A stretch of DNA of 64,000 nucleotides from Listeria cossartiae subsp. cayugensis (lineage in GTDB: Bacteria > Bacillota > Bacilli > Lactobacillales > Listeriaceae): positions 186,001 to 250,000 of the forward strand of contig NZ_JAARZC010000003.1 in NCBI RefSeq assembly GCF_014229095.1, in the 5' to 3' direction. Both the position numbers and the translations under genes were made by a program. Below are positions 6,192-51,346 of the stretch, one piece after another (position 1 is the first letter of the stretch; every line of letters starts with the position of its first letter). The notes beneath the pieces were generated by a model. It did not search any database. It worked only from the letters and a program-made list of their open reading frames with translations, and was not told the DNA's origin.

Positions 6192-6219
6192 AAAAAAGCG
6201 TCAGACAAGCGCCCGACGC
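6192..6219 (-). terminator. Terminator between small ORF and ABC-F gene
   Basis: GCGTC/GACGC stem with partly paired interior (6198-6219) followed on the minus strand by six T (6197-6192). It ends about 66 bases before the ABC-F start codon and about 75 bases after the small ORF stop. It could terminate the small gene or act as an attenuator of the ABC-F gene. Confidence 0.75.
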
Positions 6220-6293
6220 CAATTATAAGTATAATACTAATTTAGTACCATACTACCGATTGCGTGACTCCATGCTTCTCTCATTTTTTCTCG

Positions 6294-6404
6294 TTATACA
6301 GTTTTTTGGGCAGACTTCACCAACGTAACTGCAATACCGGAAAAAATTGCACGGACAATATACAAAAATTTAGCTATACTAGTTCGCGCATTCAAAAGAA
6401 ACAT
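6294..6404 (-). CDS. 36-residue hydrophobic peptide upstream of ABC-F gene
   Basis: Too short for ordinary ORF calling. ATG 6404 is preceded by AAAGAGGTGA at ideal spacing, and TAA is at 6294. The peptide starts MFLLNARTSIAKFLYIVRAI, then a hydrophobic FSGIAVTLV stretch and the basic end KSAQKTV: a single amphipathic or membrane-active helix. The promoter (6435-6463) is strong. It may be an independent small membrane protein or a leader peptide for the ABC-F gene, whose start lies downstream past a terminator. I do not recognise a family. Confidence 0.6.
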   Translation of the reverse strand: MFLLNARTSIAKFLYIVRAIFSGIAVTLVKSAQKTV

Positions 6405-6434
6405 GTCATCTCACCTCTTTTCATTAATACATAT

Positions 6435-43243: not shown

Positions 43244-44434
43244 TTATCCATTTAATTTATAATAATCTAACACAACGTCTGCAACTGATTTAGCCGCAAC
43301 TAACAACGCATCTTCATCAATGTCGAATTTCGGATGATGATTAAAATATGCATGTGAGACATTTTTTGGCTTTGCACCAATGTAGAAGAAAACGCCCGGG
43401 ATTTTTTGTAGATAATATGCAAAATCTTCTGACCCTGAAAGCATATCATATTCAGAGATTTCTGTTAAGTACTCCCCAAGACCTTTTTGCAAACTACCAA
43501 TAACTTGTTCCGTTACAGCTGGATCATTATAAAGTGGCGGATAATCATTTGTATACGTTAATTCCACGCTTACGCCAAACATCGCCTCAATACCAGCAAC
43601 AATTCGGTGGATTTCCGCGTCCATTTTATCTCGATTTTCAGTATTCATATAACGAACGTCGCCTTCTAACTCCACAGCATCCTTAATTACATTAAAGCTA
43701 CCTTTTCCGTCAAAAGAACCAATTGTTATAACACCCGTATCAAATGGATTCAAGCGTCTGCTCACAACCGTTTGGATAGCTGTCACAAAATAAGCACCCG
43801 CAACAATCGCGTCATTCGCCATATGCGGAGACGAACCATGCCCACCAACACCTTGAATTTTTAATTTAAAATAGGTGCGTCCAGCCATCGCGTAGCCACT
43901 ATGATAATATACTTGACCACTTTCACCGAATGGAAATACATGAATCCCAAAAATTTGGTCCACATCGTCCAAAATACCGGACTCGACAACGCTTTTCGCT
44001 CCGCCGGGTGGTGCTTCTTCGGCATGTTGATGCACAATTTTAATCGTTCCAGGAATATTTTCTTTCAGCTGGATTAAGCAATCTGCCAACACAAGTAAAT
44101 AAGCCGTATGTCCATCATGACCACAAGCGTGCATTACGCCAGGATTTTTGGACTTAAATGGTAAATCGGTTTCTTCTTCAATCGGAAGTGCATCGAAATC
44201 GGCGCGCAAAGCAATAGTTTTTCCGGGTTTGCCACCTTTAATCGTTACAACTACCGCATGGCCATTACCTACTTCCGTTGCAATTTCTACATCTTTTCCT
44301 TTGTAAAAATCTTGAATGAATTTTGCTGTTTCTGCTTCATGAAACGATAATTCAGGATGTTCGTGCAAATGACGTCTAATCTGAGTGATTTCATCTTTTC
44401 GTTCCTCAAGCATGTTCATTAACTTGGTACGCAT
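43244..44434 (-). CDS. M20 family amidohydrolase (copy 2)
   Basis: 396 residues. M20D metallo-amidohydrolase: IRRHLHEHPELSFHE, the metal-binding CGHDGHTAY, HQHAEEAPPGGA, and GHGSSPH in the dimerisation domain. Relatives remove acyl or amino-acid groups from N-acyl amino acids. Closely similar to the copy at 45850-47037; the two flank an MFS gene in one operon. Confidence 0.9.
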   Translation of the reverse strand: MRTKLMNMLEERKDEITQIRRHLHEHPELSFHEAETAKFIQDFYKGKDVEIATEVGNGHAVVVTIKGGKPGKTIALRADFDALPIEEETDLPFKSKNPGVMHACGHDGHTAYLLVLADCLIQLKENIPGTIKIVHQHAEEAPPGGAKSVVESGILDDVDQIFGIHVFPFGESGQVYYHSGYAMAGRTYFKLKIQGVGGHGSSPHMANDAIVAGAYFVTAIQTVVSRRLNPFDTGVITIGSFDGKGSFNVIKDAVELEGDVRYMNTENRDKMDAEIHRIVAGIEAMFGVSVELTYTNDYPPLYNDPAVTEQVIGSLQKGLGEYLTEISEYDMLSGSEDFAYYLQKIPGVFFYIGAKPKNVSHAYFNHHPKFDIDEDALLVAAKSVADVVLDYYKLNG

Positions 44435-44449
44435 GATAAATACAGCCTC

Positions 44450-45850
44450 CTATTCTTTTGCCGCTTTTAATTCGAGTGCTTTTTTCGCAGACGGTGTTGT
44501 TACCGCAACAGCAATAAGTGACACTACACAAAAACCAACATTTGTTAAAAGTCCAACCATTGCAGCTAAATCAATATTTCCGGAAAGTGCAATCACTCCA
44601 TAAATTGTAGCGGAAATCGCCACGCCGAATGAGCCACCTAGCGAACTTGCCATTTTGTAAATCCCAGAAGCTACTCCGACTTTATCTTCCGGTGCATTGG
44701 AAATCGCTGTATCTGTTGAAGGTGTTGCATACATGCCAAGTCCGATACCGAATAAAGCAAAACCGATAAACACAAGTACTGTATAAAGTGTTCCCGGAAC
44801 AAATGTTAGTGCCATTAATGCAATACCAACTGCTGTAATTCCAGAACCTAGAATCATTGGTTTACGCGCACCAACACGTTGCAGAATTTTTTCACCAATA
44901 CGAATCATTCCAAGTACACAAACTAGATAACCGATAGAAAGTAAACCTGATTGGAATGCCGTAAAACCACGACCAATTTGCACATAAGTGTTTGCAACAA
45001 CAAGTGTTCCAGCTGCGGCGTTTAACAAGAAGTTAGAAAGTGTTGCGCCTGTATAAGCTTTATTTTTAAACAACGAGAAATCAATAAATCCATTGGCTTG
45101 TCGTAGTTCCACTCGGAAAAATAGTCCCGCGGAAATTAGGAAAACAACGAGCATAGCGATTGTAATTGGGCTTGTCCAACCAAATGTAGCCCCACGAGTA
45201 ATGATAAGGTTTAAGCAAACCATTGCGATAACGAAAAGAACAAGTCCAACTGAGTCAAATTTTGCTTTCGTATTTTGAACGACTTTACTTTCTGGAGTAC
45301 CTTTAATTAATAGCATTCCAAGTAGTGCGAATACGATGGAAATAATGAAAATCCAGCGCCAACCCATGTAAGTTGCGATAGCTCCACCTGCAAATGAACA
45401 AATACCAGATCCGCCCCATGAGCCGATTGACCAGTAACTAAGCGCTCTTTGTCTGTCCGCACCTTCGAAATAAGCTTTCATTAATGCAAGAGTTGCCGGC
45501 ATAATACAAGCAGCTGAAAGCCCTTGAATAATACGACCGATAATAAGTAACGTTGCACCTTGAGTCACAACAAGTAGTAGCGAACCTATAATGCTAAGAA
45601 TAAGTCCAATATAAGTTAATTTTACACGACCAAATTTGTCAGCCATTCCGCCCGCTACAACAATAAAAATACCTGAAAATAGTGCGGTTAAGCTGATTGC
45701 GATACTAAGTAAATCTGAGGAAATCCCAAGATCTGATTGTACCGCTGGGATGATATTTACCATTGATTGAGCAAAAAGCCAAAACGTGATAACTCCAAAA
45801 ACAATCCCAACAATAAGTTTATTTGTGCCTTTATAAGCAGTTGATGTCAT
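44450..45850 (-). CDS. MFS transporter between the two M20 genes
   Basis: 466 residues, about fourteen membrane helices, DHA2 (EmrB/QacA) type: GGMADKFGRVKLTYIG (motif A) and a LGMYATPSTDTAISN-type late motif. Its ATG overlaps the preceding M20 stop (TAATG), and the next M20 starts 15 bases after its stop, so all three are translated together. It probably moves the substrate or product of the hydrolases. Confidence 0.88.
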   Translation of the reverse strand: MTSTAYKGTNKLIVGIVFGVITFWLFAQSMVNIIPAVQSDLGISSDLLSIAISLTALFSGIFIVVAGGMADKFGRVKLTYIGLILSIIGSLLLVVTQGATLLIIGRIIQGLSAACIMPATLALMKAYFEGADRQRALSYWSIGSWGGSGICSFAGGAIATYMGWRWIFIISIVFALLGMLLIKGTPESKVVQNTKAKFDSVGLVLFVIAMVCLNLIITRGATFGWTSPITIAMLVVFLISAGLFFRVELRQANGFIDFSLFKNKAYTGATLSNFLLNAAAGTLVVANTYVQIGRGFTAFQSGLLSIGYLVCVLGMIRIGEKILQRVGARKPMILGSGITAVGIALMALTFVPGTLYTVLVFIGFALFGIGLGMYATPSTDTAISNAPEDKVGVASGIYKMASSLGGSFGVAISATIYGVIALSGNIDLAAMVGLLTNVGFCVVSLIAVAVTTPSAKKALELKAAKE

Positions 45851-47037
45851 TAGTTATTCTCTCCTTTTAAGTAATCTACAACACAAGCTCCCATTGCTTT
45901 TGATGCAATTAATAACGAATCTTCATTAATATCGAATTTTGGATGATGATGCGGGTAAAAATGACCATCCGCCGGCATCGCGCCAACATAGAAAAATGAG
46001 CTCGGACGTTCTTTTGCATAATAAGCAAAGTCTTCCGATGGCGGTTGCGGCTCACAGCGTATAACATCCGTAATTTCTGGAATATCCGCCCCTTTAATTG
46101 ATTTAACAACAAACTCTGTCAAAGCTTCGTCATTATTTAAAACCGGATAATCATTTTTGTAATCCAGTTCACAAGTAACGCCAAACATCGTTTCAATCCC
46201 GTTAACGATACGCGTAATTTCTTTTTGAATAATATTGCGCGCCTCTTCGGACATTGAGCGAACATCACCTTCAAGTTCCACAGCATCCTTAATTACATTA
46301 AAACTACCTTTTCCGTCAAAAGAACCAATCGTAATCGAACCAACATCAAACGGATTCAAACGGCGGCTAATAACGGTTTGAACAGCGACAACGAATTCAC
46401 TAGCTGCCACAATTGCGTCATTTGCCAAATGTGGGGAAGATCCGTGCCCACCTTGACCTTGAACTTTAAGTTTGAAATAAGAACGACCAGTTTGAATCGC
46501 GCCTTCGCGGTAGAAAACCTCGCCTGTTTTCATCGTAGACATAACATGAATTCCAAGTACATTATCCACGCCATCTAATGCGCCATCGTTAATCATTTGA
46601 ATCGCGCCACCAGGAGGAGTTTCTTCTGCATGTTGATGTAAAATAACAATTTTCCCAGTTAATTCTTGTTTCATTTCGATAAGCGTTTCACCTAAAATAA
46701 GCATGTAAGCTGTATGACCATCGTGACCACAAGCGTGCATTACACCAGGGTTTTTAGAGGCAAAAGTTAACCCAGTTTCTTCGTGAATAGGAAGTGCATC
46801 AAAGTCGGCGCGAATAGCAAGCGTCTTACCCGGCTTGCCTGTGTCAATCGTTACAACAACACCATTTCCCCCAACATGCGTCCGCACATCGCAGTCCATA
46901 TCTTTGTAAAAATCTGCCACATATTTCGCTGTATTTTCCTCTTGAAAAGAAAGTTCAGGGTGCTCATGTAAGTAACGACGAATTTCTATCATACGATCTC
47001 GTTTTTCGTCTAGTTTTTGAAACAACTTCTCTTTCAT
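45850..47037 (-). CDS. M20 family amidohydrolase (copy 1)
   Basis: 395 residues from ATG 47037 (GGAGG at eight bases; the frame opens at 47079). Same motifs as copy 2: IRRYLHEHPELSFQE, CGHDGHTAYML, HQHAEETPPGGA, GHGSSPH. First gene of the M20-MFS-M20 operon. The two copies share most residues in the first 120 positions, indicating tandem duplication. Confidence 0.9.
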   Translation of the reverse strand: MKEKLFQKLDEKRDRMIEIRRYLHEHPELSFQEENTAKYVADFYKDMDCDVRTHVGGNGVVVTIDTGKPGKTLAIRADFDALPIHEETGLTFASKNPGVMHACGHDGHTAYMLILGETLIEMKQELTGKIVILHQHAEETPPGGAIQMINDGALDGVDNVLGIHVMSTMKTGEVFYREGAIQTGRSYFKLKVQGQGGHGSSPHLANDAIVAASEFVVAVQTVISRRLNPFDVGSITIGSFDGKGSFNVIKDAVELEGDVRSMSEEARNIIQKEITRIVNGIETMFGVTCELDYKNDYPVLNNDEALTEFVVKSIKGADIPEITDVIRCEPQPPSEDFAYYAKERPSSFFYVGAMPADGHFYPHHHPKFDINEDSLLIASKAMGACVVDYLKGENN

Positions 47038-47217
47038 TCTCCAAACCTCCATTTTTAATACTTCTGCTGGCCAGAACATCCGTATTTTTAACTACACCTT
47101 TATTATAAAAAAATTTATCCTAAAAGAAGTTTGCTTTTTTGCTTAGTTTTAGCTTGAAATTTTCTTCTTTTCTAAACGGCACCGGCCAATGTCAAAAATT
47201 CGGTGTTGAAGGTATAA

Positions 47218-47248: not shown

Positions 47249-49589
47249 AAATCGAACTTCTAAACTCATAAAAATGAATCGCATTAATATCTAAATAAGC
47301 ATAAAATGACCAATCTTCCGTAATCGACTCATCCGTCACCGTAAGCGTCGGCTGTGAAACCTCCACAATATAATCCAAAATTTCTTGATCCATCCCATAC
47401 TTACTATTCAACTGCCAATACTTCGAGTAAAGCGCCCCATTATCACGGTCAAACTGCCACTTGCGCACCTGATAATCACCAGCCTCAAGCCCCGTAAGTC
47501 GAATATGCATTTCTTTTTGCTCTTCTTTAATGAACCGTTCCTCCACCGAATAACGCGGATTAATCGTCGCACAGTTCATCAAAATCAACTGATATCCGTC
47601 GACATGCTTCGTCATAATAAAGTCCGGACCTTCCGCGACAACAACACCTTTAAGCCTTCTCAAAAACTTCACCGCATAAAACGCCGGCCTTTTTCCGTTA
47701 AAGAAGTGAAACATTTCAATCCCGTCAAGGCTAATATTTAACTTACTATCATCACCCTCATGCAGCTCCGTATTAATCCAAAAGCCTAACGCATCCACTT
47801 CCGGCACCAAATCTAACATCGTTTTCAAAACAAGCGCACCCCGGAAAAATGTCCCGTTCGTGTACCTAGTATTCCCCGATAGCGTATTCCAATTCACCAA
47901 CATCAACGGTTTATTAATATGATGATGCTTCAAGAAAGCCTTCAATTTCAACGTTTTCGACAAACAATGATCCTCTGAAACTAAAAACGACTGCGTATCC
48001 TCTTTCGAAAAATCTACCGCTTCATTTTGATTTGCATTAAAGGCGACAAAATCAATCTTGTCCGCTTCTTCTAAAAACCACATGTGGCACTCTGGCACCG
48101 CATCTTTTGACAACGAAAACGGGACAAAATTTCCGACTTGGATAGCAGGAAAACGCGATTTTATAATTTGATATAGTTTCAAATAGAGTTTTCTTAACTC
48201 CTCTTTATCAGCATATGTATTTTTCGGCTCAAAAAACATAAAATGCCATTTAGAAACAAATTCCCGCCCAAAAACTTGAATACAATGCCTTAAAAAGTGA
48301 TCCAACCGCTCAAAAACAGCTTCTTCATCGCCTAATATATCTTGATACTCCAACCGAATAAACAACTGTAAATTCTGCTGTTTTAAAAAAGTGAGCGCTA
48401 AATCCGCATTAGCATATGGCGAAGACGTTGGCACTAACTCATCCGTTTCCGTTTCGGGCAAGAACGTCGAACCTCTAAACAAATGACGAATACCAATATA
48501 ATTTATCCCAATTTCATCACGCGTCGTAATAATCTGCTTTTGCACGTTATGCTTCAATACTTCTTTAAGCTCACCAATCGTCAAAATGTTCATATTCTTA
48601 CTAAGAGAGCGCGCCGCTTTTTCCGTAATATCAATCTTCTTTTTCTCAAAAGGCGCTTTATTTAATTCCTTACCAAGCTCCACATCGTAATAAAGTCCCG
48701 CTAACTTCACTAAAATCTCCGGCGATGGCGCAATATGTTCGATACTAGCGCCCATTTGCGACGCCCGATTTTCTATTAACAAATTCGTTTCCGAATGATG
48801 TTCCATACGATATTCGCTAGGCGTTAACTCAAAATGAAACTTGAACACTTCCGAAAAATGTTTTTGACTCGAAAAGCCATTTTTCAGCGCTATTTCCGTA
48901 ATAGTTTCCGCCGAGTGAAGCAAATCTTGAATCGCATGCTTCAGCCGAACTTCCGTCAAATACTGCAAAAAGCCTAACCCCGTCGTCTTTTTAAAATAAC
49001 GCGACAAATACGCCTCACTCAAAAACTCTTTTTGGGCAAACTCCCGCAGAGACAAGGCTTCATCAAACCGCTCTTCCACTTCCCGAATAATACGCGAAAT
49101 CCGTTTATCATTAACTTCTTTCCGTGCCGAAGACGGAATTCCTCTTTTCAAAAAGCGCGTAAGCAAAAGTAAAATTTGGAATAATGCCGATTGCGCCTCT
49201 AATTTATTCGCGCGTTTTTTAGTCGCCGAGGCAATCAAAAGCTCACTAATCGACTTTCGTAAAGACCCAACAACCCGCTCGCGCCCCGGATCACTCTCCT
49301 TCGAGAAAAATTTAAACGAATGCTGGAAATAATCCTCATAATAATGCGCAAAAAATGTATCTGAAATAGTTAAATCAATAATTAAATTAGCTTCATTTCC
49401 TTCAATTGTATAAAAAGTGTTGCGATCAAGAACTAAAATATCGCCTTCCTGCAAATAAAATTTCTGCTCTGAAAGCTTAATCGTTATCTGTCCAGAAATA
49501 GCAAATACCAACTTTGTTCCAAGTGAAATTTCCGAAGTCAGCTGCTTTATATGTTGAATCCCAATCGTATAATCTTTCAAATGTGGCAC
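47247..49589 (-). CDS. AraC family regulator fused to a GH39-like domain
   Basis: 780 residues from GTG 49589 (AAGGAG at eight bases; GTG 49598 is too close to it). Domains in order: cupin-like sensor (1-90), AraC HTH pair (about 170-265; LSREFAQKEFLS-type helix and AETITEIALKNGFSSQKHFSE), then ~480 residues resembling a GH39 beta-xylosidase barrel and C-terminal beta domain. The barrel may sense a sugar or be catalytic. Divergent from the AbiF-like gene; no sugar operon is adjacent. Confidence 0.8.
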   Translation of the reverse strand: MPHLKDYTIGIQHIKQLTSEISLGTKLVFAISGQITIKLSEQKFYLQEGDILVLDRNTFYTIEGNEANLIIDLTISDTFFAHYYEDYFQHSFKFFSKESDPGRERVVGSLRKSISELLIASATKKRANKLEAQSALFQILLLLTRFLKRGIPSSARKEVNDKRISRIIREVEERFDEALSLREFAQKEFLSEAYLSRYFKKTTGLGFLQYLTEVRLKHAIQDLLHSAETITEIALKNGFSSQKHFSEVFKFHFELTPSEYRMEHHSETNLLIENRASQMGASIEHIAPSPEILVKLAGLYYDVELGKELNKAPFEKKKIDITEKAARSLSKNMNILTIGELKEVLKHNVQKQIITTRDEIGINYIGIRHLFRGSTFLPETETDELVPTSSPYANADLALTFLKQQNLQLFIRLEYQDILGDEEAVFERLDHFLRHCIQVFGREFVSKWHFMFFEPKNTYADKEELRKLYLKLYQIIKSRFPAIQVGNFVPFSLSKDAVPECHMWFLEEADKIDFVAFNANQNEAVDFSKEDTQSFLVSEDHCLSKTLKLKAFLKHHHINKPLMLVNWNTLSGNTRYTNGTFFRGALVLKTMLDLVPEVDALGFWINTELHEGDDSKLNISLDGIEMFHFFNGKRPAFYAVKFLRRLKGVVVAEGPDFIMTKHVDGYQLILMNCATINPRYSVEERFIKEEQKEMHIRLTGLEAGDYQVRKWQFDRDNGALYSKYWQLNSKYGMDQEILDYIVEVSQPTLTVTDESITEDWSFYAYLDINAIHFYEFRSSI

Positions 49590-49700
49590 GTGATTCACTC
49601 CTTCGTTTAACTTAATCGGACACTTTTATATTATCATAGACGTGAAGATTAAGCGCTAGTGTTTTTGGTTGGGGTTTATAAAAACAGATTATGCTTTTCC

Positions 49701-49729
49701 TTGTGTTACTGATTATCCAGCCTTATAAT
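49701..49729 (+). promoter_or_regulatory. Promoter of the AbiF-like gene
   Basis: TTGTGT (49701-49706), 17 bases, perfect TATAAT (49724-49729), giving a leader of about 28 bases. Confidence 0.55.
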
Positions 49730-49763
49730 AATTTAAAAAACAGTCTTCACGGGAGTGTGCTTA

Positions 49764-50834
49764 ATGAAAAATAATAATTCGAAAAAACCAGCACAGATAG
49801 GCAATATTTCTTCAAATAAAACTACAGCATCGAACAGTTCTAATTTAGCAAGAATACAGAAAATAGTTGCTACGCACGGGAAACTATCACTTGATGATCA
49901 GATTACCTATATGAAGCATAAAGGTATAACTTTTAATCATATTACAGAAGATGCTGCCAAAGATTATTTATCCCAGAATACCTATTATTATAAAGTAACA
50001 GCTTTTAGGAAAAATATAGCAAAAGAAAACGGAAAATATACTTCTTTGGACTTTGGTTTATTAAGCGATTTAGCAACCATTGACATGTATTTAAGGTACG
50101 CACTAATAAAAATAAATTTAGACATCGAACATACACTTAAAGCTTTATTGGTAAGTGTAATAACTAGGTCGAATGCTGAAGATGGGTATACTATTGTAAA
50201 AGAATATGATACGTATTGTAAAACTAAATTAATGGCAAGCAATCCTCGTTTAAAACCAGAAGAATATATTCCTGTGGATAAAAAAATAATGAATAGAAAT
50301 AAAAGTAGAGACGGATATCATTATGATTTGTACATGAAAAGAAAAAATAATCCTCCTATTTGGGTTTTAATTGAATTAATGTCATTTGGAGAACTTATAA
50401 GGTTTGTAGAGTTTTATTATGATAGTAATAAATATAAGAGAAAACTGTTTACGCCAGCTTTTATATTATTAAAATATACAAAAAATCTTAGGGACTCTGC
50501 AGCACATAGTCGACCTCTTTTGTTAGATGTTGTTTTACCAAAACAGATAACCCCAACTCAAAATGCAACACAATATGCTGAAAAAGCTGGTGTAGAAAAA
50601 CTAGAACGTAGGAACTTAGTTTCAAATAAAAAAATTCACGATTTTATTTGCATGCTTATTCTTCATGATGAATATATTAAAAGTGATGCCATGAAAAGTG
50701 ATAGAAAAATAGAGTTAACTAATTTAATCGAACGCTGTACAAAACGGTCTCACTACTATAAAGATCAAGCTGACTTAATTAGGGTTTACGAAGTTTTGTC
50801 TAAAATCCTTGCCAACTACCACCAAAAATGCTAA
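49764..50834 (+). CDS. AbiF/AbiD-like HEPN protein (Abi_2 family)
   Basis: 356 residues from ATG 49764 (GGGAG eight bases upstream; GTG 49755 overlaps that site). The Abi_2 pattern is visible: LDDQITYMKHKGI, an ..AAKDYLSQNTYYYKVTAFRK segment, LATIDMYLRYALIKINLDIEHTLK. NLRDSAAHSRPLL gives the HEPN catalytic motif R243-x4-H248, so it is a candidate RNase. The family includes lactococcal abortive-infection proteins. Strikingly AT-rich and Asn/Lys-rich compared with its neighbours, suggesting acquisition. Flanked downstream by a candidate ncRNA (50844-50972). I recall that inlJ occupies this site in L. monocytogenes. Confidence 0.82.
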   Translation: MKNNNSKKPAQIGNISSNKTTASNSSNLARIQKIVATHGKLSLDDQITYMKHKGITFNHITEDAAKDYLSQNTYYYKVTAFRKNIAKENGKYTSLDFGLLSDLATIDMYLRYALIKINLDIEHTLKALLVSVITRSNAEDGYTIVKEYDTYCKTKLMASNPRLKPEEYIPVDKKIMNRNKSRDGYHYDLYMKRKNNPPIWVLIELMSFGELIRFVEFYYDSNKYKRKLFTPAFILLKYTKNLRDSAAHSRPLLLDVVLPKQITPTQNATQYAEKAGVEKLERRNLVSNKKIHDFICMLILHDEYIKSDAMKSDRKIELTNLIERCTKRSHYYKDQADLIRVYEVLSKILANYHQKC

Positions 50835-50837
50835 AAT
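50809..50837 (+). promoter_or_regulatory. Promoter inside the 3' end of the AbiF-like gene
   Basis: TTGCCA (50809-50814), 17 bases, TAAAAT (50832-50837): 5 of 6 matches to each sigma-A element at ideal spacing. The -10 contains the gene's TAA stop. Start expected near 50844. Confidence 0.7.
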
Positions 50838-50843
50838 TTATTC

Positions 50844-50972
50844 AAAGGAAAAAACGGTTCGACCGTTTATCACTCATGTACAATATTGTATGTAAGTTGG
50901 TTATTCTTCACAAAATAAACTATTTAAGACAAGCTTCCGTTTTCTAGTCTGTCTTAAGTAGTTTATTTTTTT
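50844..50972 (+). ncRNA. Candidate structured ncRNA paired with the AbiF-like gene
   Basis: About 130 bases between the internal promoter and a terminator. It holds a perfect 7-bp hairpin AAACGGT-TCG-ACCGTTT (50852-50868), a 12-bp palindrome TACAATATTGTA (50879-50890) and a 20-bp stem (50912-50931 with 50950-50969, one G-U) with an 18-base loop and a T run. No ORF. Could be the RNA antitoxin or guide-like partner of the HEPN protein. Confidence 0.55.
50912..50972 (+). terminator. Terminator stem of the candidate ncRNA
   Basis: 20-bp stem, 18-base loop, TTTTTT at 50967-50972. Unusually long for a simple terminator and may be a functional RNA domain. Confidence 0.8.
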
Positions 50973-50980
50973 ACTGTATA

Positions 50981-51018
50981 AAAAAGCCAGCCAGGATTAA
51001 TTTCCCGACCGGCTTTTT
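50981..51018. terminator. Terminator of the DUF1015 operon
   Basis: AAAAA/TTTTT feet around a 10-bp G-U-containing stem on the minus strand (50981-50995 with 51004-51018). Confidence 0.75.
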
Positions 51019-51022
51019 GATT

Positions 51023-51346
51023 TTAATCTTCTTCCACTTGAATTGAAACACCCACATCTAGCAAGTCTTCAATCGCTTCAATCACAGAAAACTCGCCATA
51101 CTTATATACTTCCTCATTCACAACTAAAACCGGCAAAGCTTCCATCCCGTTCTCGTCAAGCAGCGTCTCAACCAACTCCGGCAATTCCACTTTCCCGACC
51201 TCACCAAGCTGAATATCAAACACAATACCTGTATATTCAAAATGGATTTCACGCTCAGCTTCACTTTTATTCATAAACTCTTTCCATATCTCTAGGTGTA
51301 TCTCCGACTCATTTTCCGCAGAATAAAAGTAACTAATATGCTTCAT
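51023..51346 (-). CDS. Small thioredoxin-fold-like protein
   Basis: 107 acidic residues without any cysteine. The stretch LLDENGMEALPVLVVNEEVYKYGEF resembles the C-terminal half of ArsD-like thioredoxin folds (ALPVILVDGEI, then a GRYP-type turn), but the N-terminal metalloid-binding cysteines are missing. Begins seven bases after the DUF1015 stop, so co-transcribed with it. Weak ribosome site. Function unknown. Confidence 0.55.
   Translation of the reverse strand: MKHISYFYSAENESEIHLEIWKEFMNKSEAEREIHFEYTGIVFDIQLGEVGKVELPELVETLLDENGMEALPVLVVNEEVYKYGEFSVIEAIEDLLDVGVSIQVEED

What the first reader, a model, noticed from the sequence alone, without database searches (positions are those of the whole stretch)
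49700..50975. HEPN AbiF-like gene with a dedicated promoter and structured ncRNA overlapping its stop codon
Seen: an Abi_2-type protein with an R-x4-H HEPN motif (R243, H248); directly at its 3' end a near-consensus promoter TTGCCA-17-TAAAAT whose -10 contains the stop codon; then ~130 bases with no ORF, a perfect 7-bp hairpin, a 12-bp palindrome and a 20-bp terminator stem with T run. Known: HEPN Abi_2 proteins are abortive-infection effectors, and I recall recent work deriving Cas13 from AbiF-like proteins that work with a neighbouring ncRNA. Inference: this is an RNA-controlled HEPN toxin/anti-phage unit in Listeria.
Basis: partly seen in the sequence, partly recalled or inferred. Interest (0 to 1): 0.9.

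Follow-up and report, generated by a model that had tools for sequence, protein, structure and literature searches.

The report
HEPN toxin with downstream RNA partner
A Listeria gene for a probable RNA-cutting phage-defence toxin ends in a separate small RNA gene that many related toxins also carry, and stand-alone copies of that RNA sit in some phage genomes, perhaps to disarm the toxin.

Summary
Window 49764-50834 encodes an Abi_2 HEPN protein whose only PDB fold match at E<=0.001 is PbAbiF bound to its RNA. At its stop codon lie a promoter, a ~130-nt structured RNA and a terminator. Promoter, GAAA and hairpin recur at 32 of 52 relatives' gene ends against 1 of 184 other ORF ends. In a Staphylococcus relative the RNA is Rfam RF02397, sau-5971/RsaL, a Northern-validated sRNA. 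The known abiF RNA (RF03085) was not found here or at 49 relatives, so this is a distinct, downstream RNA. RNAs outlive toxins: two Listeria genomes lost the toxin by different deletions but keep promoter and RNA. Ten viral contigs and one prophage remnant carry the RNA in records or genomes without a detected Abi_2 gene; seven of these eleven are supported beyond the search pattern. Best reading: a toxin/RNA-antitoxin defence pair that works like AbiF, a new variant of a known kind. Boldest reading: phages carry the RNA as a decoy antitoxin. Nothing was measured in Listeria; toxicity, binding and phage effect are inferred.

The parts
49764..50834 (+). Abi_2 (AbiD/F-type) HEPN protein, 356 aa; HEPN motif R243-N244-x3-H248
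   Evidence: Pfam PF07751 E 2.1e-20, PADLOC AbiD, phrog_2158; R243 and H248 invariant in 43 aligned proteins; fold match 8VZ6
50809..50837 (+). promoter TTGCCA-17-TAAAAT of the RNA; the -10 holds the toxin's stop codon
   Evidence: score >=9 at 48 of 52 relatives' gene ends
50844..50972 (+). small RNA gene, predicted start to end of T run
   Evidence: fold z -6.7; start inferred from the promoter and from the 5' boundary of sau-5971 in L038
50847..50851 (+). GGAAA 5' of hairpin 1
   Evidence: conserved in alignment A1
50852..50868 (+). hairpin 1, 7 bp, loop TCG
   Evidence: two-sided compensatory changes at 7 of 7 pairs in 18 sequences
50869..50901 (+). hairpin 2 around the 12-bp palindrome
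   Evidence: predicted fold; covariation not tested apart
50899..50904 (+). GGTTAT, recurrent in several relatives and phage copies
   Evidence: by eye and in pairwise alignments
50912..50972 (+). Rho-independent terminator, 20-bp stem plus T run

Best explanation
A two-gene defence unit that works like a type III toxin-antitoxin pair. The Abi_2 HEPN protein is a dimeric RNase toxin held inactive by binding the small RNA made from its own promoter at the toxin's 3' end. Phage infection, by cutting off or degrading the RNA supply, would free the toxin, which cleaves RNA and aborts the infection. Shown here: protein family and fold, invariant HEPN residues, the recurrent RNA gene with its compensated stem, its linkage to the toxin, and RNA copies outliving the toxin. 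Shown by others: transcription of the S. aureus member. Inferred: dimer, binding, inhibition, RNase activity, toxicity, triggering by phage.
For: Only PDB match at E<=0.001 is PbAbiF with ncRNA (8VZ6), also found by sequence profile, E 7e-6. R243 and H248 invariant. Promoter + GAAA + hairpin at the gene end in 32 of 52 relatives against 1 of 184. Seven of seven stem pairs with two-sided changes, covariation 0.66 against 0.21 in shuffles, 0 of 500. S. aureus member is RF02397/sau-5971, validated on Northern blots. Toxin lost and RNA kept by two different deletions in Listeria, as expected if toxin goes before antitoxin. A solved and a characterised relative are RNA-neutralised (PMC12373285, PMC12737573 passages).
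Against: No transcript, binding or toxicity measured. The RNA lacks the abiF motif and stands downstream, not upstream. The covariance model found nothing at E<=0.01 in 33 relatives' and control loci outside its seed, so homology of the RNA across all relatives rests on layout and short motifs. Rows of the covariation test were chosen by eye for a hairpin. PMC3386247 calls RsaL 'processed from large 3'UTR', not independently started. By identity only one protein stretch ties it to AbiFCd (24% over 172 aa).
Confidence: 0.72

Rival explanations
1. The RNA is a cis-acting 3' element: it ends or stabilises the toxin mRNA or sets its level and does not bind the protein.
For: RsaL is described as processed from a 3'UTR; every copy ends in a terminator-like hairpin in the toxin-linked loci inspected.
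Against: The promoter sits at the gene end in 48 of 52 relatives. Copies without toxin keep promoter and RNA in Listeria and occur in phage records with no detected Abi_2.
Confidence: 0.1
2. The RNA is an ordinary trans-acting regulatory sRNA that happens to travel with Abi genes.
For: It persists without the toxin and the S. aureus one is highly expressed.
Against: It is tied to the ends of Abi genes across several families of Bacilli. Stem sequence changes fast with pairing kept, which suits protein binding better than pairing with a fixed mRNA.
Confidence: 0.08
3. The RNA is a guide that directs the HEPN protein to phage RNA, Cas13-like.
For: HEPN proteins of this family are proposed ancestors of Cas13 (PMC12373285 discussion; PMC12737573 passages).
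Against: No array of repeats and spacers was noted at the locus; in Listeria the RNA is nearly constant between genomes. No search for targets was made.
Confidence: 0.04
4. Toxin-less copies are decay remnants or passengers and do nothing; only the toxin-linked pair matters.
For: G177 and G032/G039 keep scraps of the Abi gene beside the RNA, so decay does occur. G018 has a change in the conserved GGTTAT. L125/L169 stand before an integrase as toxin-linked L043/L182 relatives do. In G002 the short spacer beyond the RNA is as conserved as the RNA.
Against: RNA mismatches in the toxin-less Listeria are 0 of 128 and 3 of 128, against 63 and 173 of 1326 in a neighbouring gene. L113, L189 and L139 stand in phages at a similar site after a transcription regulator gene, with no Abi scrap found. 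L112, L125, L195 and L199 have a TATAAT promoter unlike toxin-linked copies (by eye).
Confidence: 0.45

Closest known systems
AbiF-ncRNA pairs: PbAbiF (PDB 8VZ6) and AbiFCd-RCd22 of C. difficile (PMC12373285)
   Same: Abi_2 HEPN protein with R and H of the motif, PbAbiF fold, one adjacent structured ncRNA with promoter and terminator.
   Different: RNA downstream with its own promoter across the stop codon, not upstream and co-transcribed; no RF03085 motif; the unpaired stretch is GGAAA 5' of the stem, where RF03085 has its internal loop on the 3' side. Only 24% protein identity over 172 aa to AbiFCd.
AbiD of Lactococcus/Streptococcus
   Same: Best PADLOC family; AbiD gives narrow phage resistance with mechanism listed as unknown in S. 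thermophilus (PMC12322248 passages).
   Different: I saw no RNA partner mentioned for AbiD in those passages; the founding L. lactis genes were not fetched.
sau-5971 / RsaL (Rfam RF02397)
   Same: It is the RNA at the end of the S. aureus relative of this gene (L038), with stop codon inside the -10.
   Different: The RF02397 model does not match the window RNA (E<=10); sequences have diverged.
Phage RNA mimics: pseudo-ToxI (PMC3475682) and Racr (PMC10651486), abstracts seen
   Same: Phage-borne copies of the RNA part of a host defence system.
   Different: Here the system is Abi_2 HEPN, the copy is single, and function is inferred only.

Membership tests
Abi_2 / HEPN abortive-infection proteins (PF07751) | Abi_2 domain above the curated cut-off | tested here: met
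   74.3 bits against 25.6
Abi_2 / HEPN abortive-infection proteins (PF07751) | HEPN R and H residues | tested here: met
   R243, H248 invariant in 43 proteins; N244 at least 90%
AbiF-ncRNA systems | PbAbiF-like fold | tested here: met
   8VZ6 E 2.9e-4, TM 0.50/0.58, 14% identity
AbiF-ncRNA systems | abiF RNA motif RF03085 beside the gene | tested here: not met
   absent at E<=10 in 49500-51100; phiC2 control found
AbiF-ncRNA systems | RNA upstream and co-transcribed with the gene, as in AbiFCd | tested here: not met
   RNA downstream with own promoter-like site; transcripts not measured
AbiF-ncRNA systems / type III toxin-antitoxin | toxic RNase neutralised by direct RNA binding | not testable with these tools
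   needs bench assays
Type III toxin-antitoxin (ToxIN type) | antitoxin RNA made of tandem repeats | not tested
   no repeat search was run; one core is seen by eye
sau-5971 (RF02397) | match to the Rfam model | tested here: not met
   met by L038, 117 bits; not by the window
Cas13 / type VI CRISPR | two HEPN domains and a CRISPR array | not tested
   one Abi_2 stretch found; no array search was run
Phage RNA mimics (pseudo-ToxI, Racr) | RNA copy in a phage genome without the toxin or effector | tested here: met
   0 of 10 viral records have Abi_2, 7 of 7 positive controls do; records may be fragments; 3' flank supports 6 of the 10
Phage RNA mimics (pseudo-ToxI, Racr) | the phage RNA inhibits the defence | not testable with these tools
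   needs neutralisation and plating assays

The most novel reading that the evidence does not exclude
Phages and prophages of Bacilli carry stand-alone copies of an Abi_2 antitoxin RNA as counter-defence: a decoy that keeps the host's HEPN toxin bound during infection. In some phages the copy lies among tRNA genes and is released with the right 5' end by tRNA maturation, as in L189, where the tRNA ends directly before the RNA's TAGAAA start.
Probability: 0.45. Interest if true: 0.87.

Novelty: new variant of a known kind. Interest (0 to 1): 0.72.

Why it matters
It suggests a partner and function for an abundant S. aureus sRNA (sau-5971/RsaL), for which the passages I read name none, and predicts that AbiD-type abortive-infection proteins, whose mechanism one recent table lists as unknown (PMC12322248), are RNA-controlled HEPN RNases with an RNA family of their own. 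If the phage copies work, they would be a further RNA-mimic counter-defence beside pseudo-ToxI and Racr, against the protein family from which Cas13 is proposed to derive. Each step can be tested with two plasmids in a laboratory strain.

Tried and rejected
RF03085 as the RNA: not found; in 25 Listeria genomes 0 over the cut-off and 1 weak match (which scored at most 150 candidates a genome). Other Rfam hits in the region (trpB, snR47, His_leader, 23S-methyl and more) are all below their gathering scores.

Model R1 as a general detector: no match at E<=0.01 in 33 loci outside its seed; its window match is by construction.

Viral scans: the first pattern gave 112 stretches, of which 80 were held; 16 of the 80 match R1 at E<=0.5 and 10 at E<=0.016. 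L171, L183 and L111 lie inside 512-527-aa ORFs and were rejected; L161, L179 and L150 were not looked at. The stricter pattern gave 16 stretches, 8 of them new, 6 of these 8 R1 matches below 1e-4. The ACGAT stem gave 24 stretches, none at E<=0.016; the CAAGG stem gave none. A protein search of viral contigs gave no relative.

Weak phage copies: the 3' flanks of L199, L139, L155 and L190 are no better than resampled sequence. L199 is kept because its 5' side resembles L195 and L112 by eye, L139 because of site and nearby tRNAs, L155 because it resembles L139 by eye; L190 is the weakest. L125 and L169 carry the same stretch and are not independent. BLAST in annotated phages: nothing for the window RNA core or for stretches of L139 and L189; for L113 one phage, over query 30-231, which does not reach the RNA.

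An outer stem around the core was considered and dropped, since the sau-5971 5' boundary lies too close to GGAAA. That RF03085 and this RNA are mirror or permuted forms of one fold is an idea only. Nothing is said of residues 1-19 (pLDDT under 50). A thirteenth phage or plasmid locus, L247, was fetched and not used.

Full report
What is there. Window 49764-50834 encodes a 356-aa Abi_2 protein (Pfam PF07751, E 2e-20; PADLOC AbiD; phrog_2158 'abortive infection resistance protein'; no NCBIfam family). It is the only match to itself in its genome. AlphaFold2 on 31 sequences gives mean pLDDT 89.9. Among 350,542 PDB chains one matches at E<=0.001: 8VZ6, PbAbiF dimer bound to ncRNA, 14% identity. 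A profile search of PDB sequences also returns only that entry, E 7e-6. R243 and H248 are invariant in 43 aligned proteins.

The RNA. At the stop codon are TTGCCA-17-TAAAAT, then GGAAA, a 7-bp hairpin, a second hairpin and a terminator. The promoter alone is unremarkable against shuffles; the fold is not (z -6.7). The telling test is comparison. Relatives occur in 6 of 25 Listeria genomes, 38 of 395 genomes of the order, 13 of 398 of the class (four of the 13 were in the order set), 22 phage and 18 plasmid records (12 of these 40 were fetched and studied). In 52 loci scored, a promoter of score 9 or more lies at the gene end in 48, against 13 of 50 window ORFs. Promoter plus GAAA plus hairpin is found in 32 of 52 against 1 of 184 ORF ends. 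Several of the 20 that fail show a variant by eye, for example GATGAAA before the hairpin in L013, L014, L016 and L079; others, such as L045 and L088, do not. In an 18-row alignment all seven stem pairs have two-sided changes; covariation is 0.66 against 0.21 in shuffles, 0 of 500 reaching it, and slid versions score lower. The rows were chosen by eye for the hairpin, so percent paired is flattered, and two rows (L023, L027) are misaligned. A covariance model from this alignment finds nothing at E<=0.01 in 33 loci outside its seed: the family is diverse and one model does not span it.

Not the known abiF RNA. RF03085 is absent from the region at E<=10 and from 49 relatives' loci at E<=1 or 0.5, while in the C. 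difficile phage phiC2 it is found just upstream of abiF. RF03085 has its internal loop on the 3' side; this core has unpaired GGAAA on the 5' side. AbiFCd keeps its RNA upstream and partly co-transcribed (PMC12373285, section 7).

Transcription evidence from a relative. In L038, a 2.6-kb contig filed as a Staphylococcus phage but holding rpsR, so perhaps host DNA, the RNA at the Abi gene's end is Rfam RF02397, sau-5971, 117 bits against a cut-off of 90. The match runs 2121-2216. The promoter there is TTGACT-17-TAAACT with the stop codon in the -10, ending at 2113, which predicts a start near 2120. The order Abi, RNA, convergent rpsR equals rpsR><<SA0355 given for RsaL/SAU-5971 in Table 1 of PMC3386247, where it is 'Highly expressed' and 'Processed from large 3'UTR of SA0355' (passages). 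Table 1 of PMC5826253 lists it as a bona fide sRNA with Northern validation (passage). That SA0355 is this Abi gene is my inference from gene order. A search for the RNA's name listed 5 papers; I read passages in two and saw no function.

RNA without toxin in bacteria. By DNA search 5 of 25 Listeria genomes hold this RNA. Two lack the toxin through different deletions: G002 joins window 49683 to 50808, G018 joins 49716 to 50790 with 9 bases between. Both keep promoter, RNA and terminator. With the toxin gone, RNA mismatches are 0 of 128 and 3 of 128, against 63 and 173 of 1326 in the neighbouring AraC-type gene and 76 of 1292 and 104 of 1289 in the DUF1015-like gene (p 4e-5 to 0.009). Toxin-bearing G019 shows the same, 2 of 129. 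Against selection on the RNA alone: in G002 the 44 aligned bases of the spacer beyond it are also unchanged, and G018 has a change in the recurrent GGTTAT. A scan of 295 genomes with the RNA model gave 15 with E<=0.01 where about 3 would be expected by chance, E-values being rough. Six of the 15 (G002, G018, G177, G032, G039, G165) have no Abi_2 match. G177 keeps an N-terminal scrap and G032/G039 a C-terminal scrap of an Abi gene beside the RNA; G165 shows none. Those scraps were unknown when the model was made and so support it independently, as does G005, not in the seed, with an Abi gene in two ORFs.

RNA in phages. Two patterns in viral contigs, filtered by the RNA model at E<=0.016, gave 16 contigs. 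Six have an Abi gene beside the RNA (L120, L146, L182, L193, L201, L215); ten do not (L112, L113, L125, L139, L155, L169, L189, L190, L195, L199). None of those ten records holds Abi_2, while 7 of 7 positive controls do; records may be fragments. Beyond the search pattern, the 3' flank matches a toxin-linked RNA better than all 200 Markov resamples in L112, L113, L125, L169, L189, L195 and the prophage-like remnant L107, but not in L139, L155, L190 or L199; none of 31 control loci reaches that. L113 resembles the RNA of L024, L189 that of L030, L107 that of L012. L107 lies upstream of a phage endolysin gene. In L113, L189 and L139 the upstream neighbour is a phage transcription regulator (phrog_36 or phrog_248; that these are late-gene regulators is recalled). 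In L189 a tRNA ends directly before TAGAAA; in L139 two tRNAs follow; in L113 no tRNA was found.

How it most likely works. By analogy with AbiFCd and PbAbiF (PMC12373285: abstract, sections 7 and first part of 13, passages; PMC12737573: passages; the original Cas13-origin paper was not among the papers I could read), the RNA binds the HEPN dimer and blocks its RNase, and loss of RNA supply during infection frees the toxin. RNA surviving toxin is what an antitoxin predicts. Precedents for phage mimics are pseudo-ToxI (PMC3475682, abstract and outline) and Racr (PMC10651486, abstract and outline).

Membership and novelty. It is an Abi_2 HEPN protein (tested, met). It is not filed as an AbiF/RF03085 system, since the RNA motif and the RNA position were tested and not met; it probably works like one. 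Paper searches for AbiF, AbiD or Abi_2 with RNA, ncRNA or antitoxin terms listed no paper whose title or abstract start describes this downstream RNA family or phage copies of it; most subscription papers are not held.

Limits. Nothing was measured in Listeria.

Noticed in passing
window 6192-6429: Listeria sRNA rliI (RF01487) on the - strand, 272 bits.
   Followed up: no
L005 and L009 (L. marthii scaffold): The Abi gene is split over two distant places next to N runs, most likely a scaffolding fault of the draft.
   Followed up: partly
L056, L057 against window 49640-50980: Two Listeria genomes (G011, G004) have neither toxin nor RNA between the same two neighbours.
   Followed up: partly
L078 near 1754: In toxin-less G018 part of the ArsD-like gene (window 51091-51289) is missing too.
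   Followed up: no
L011 (G023): A sub-threshold RF03085 match, 32.1 bits, in one other Listeria genome.
   Followed up: no
L037, L039, L041, L043, L047: In Streptococcus satellite phages, a prophage and an L. salivarius plasmid the Abi gene is followed by an integrase gene.
   Followed up: no
window 43244-44434 and 45850-47079: Two similar peptidase-like ORFs flank a transporter-like ORF (similarity by eye).
   Followed up: no
L045 1204-2199: Exiguobacterium plasmid copy of the Abi gene lies next to thyX and a predicted trimethoprim-resistance gene, and shows no clear RNA.
   Followed up: no
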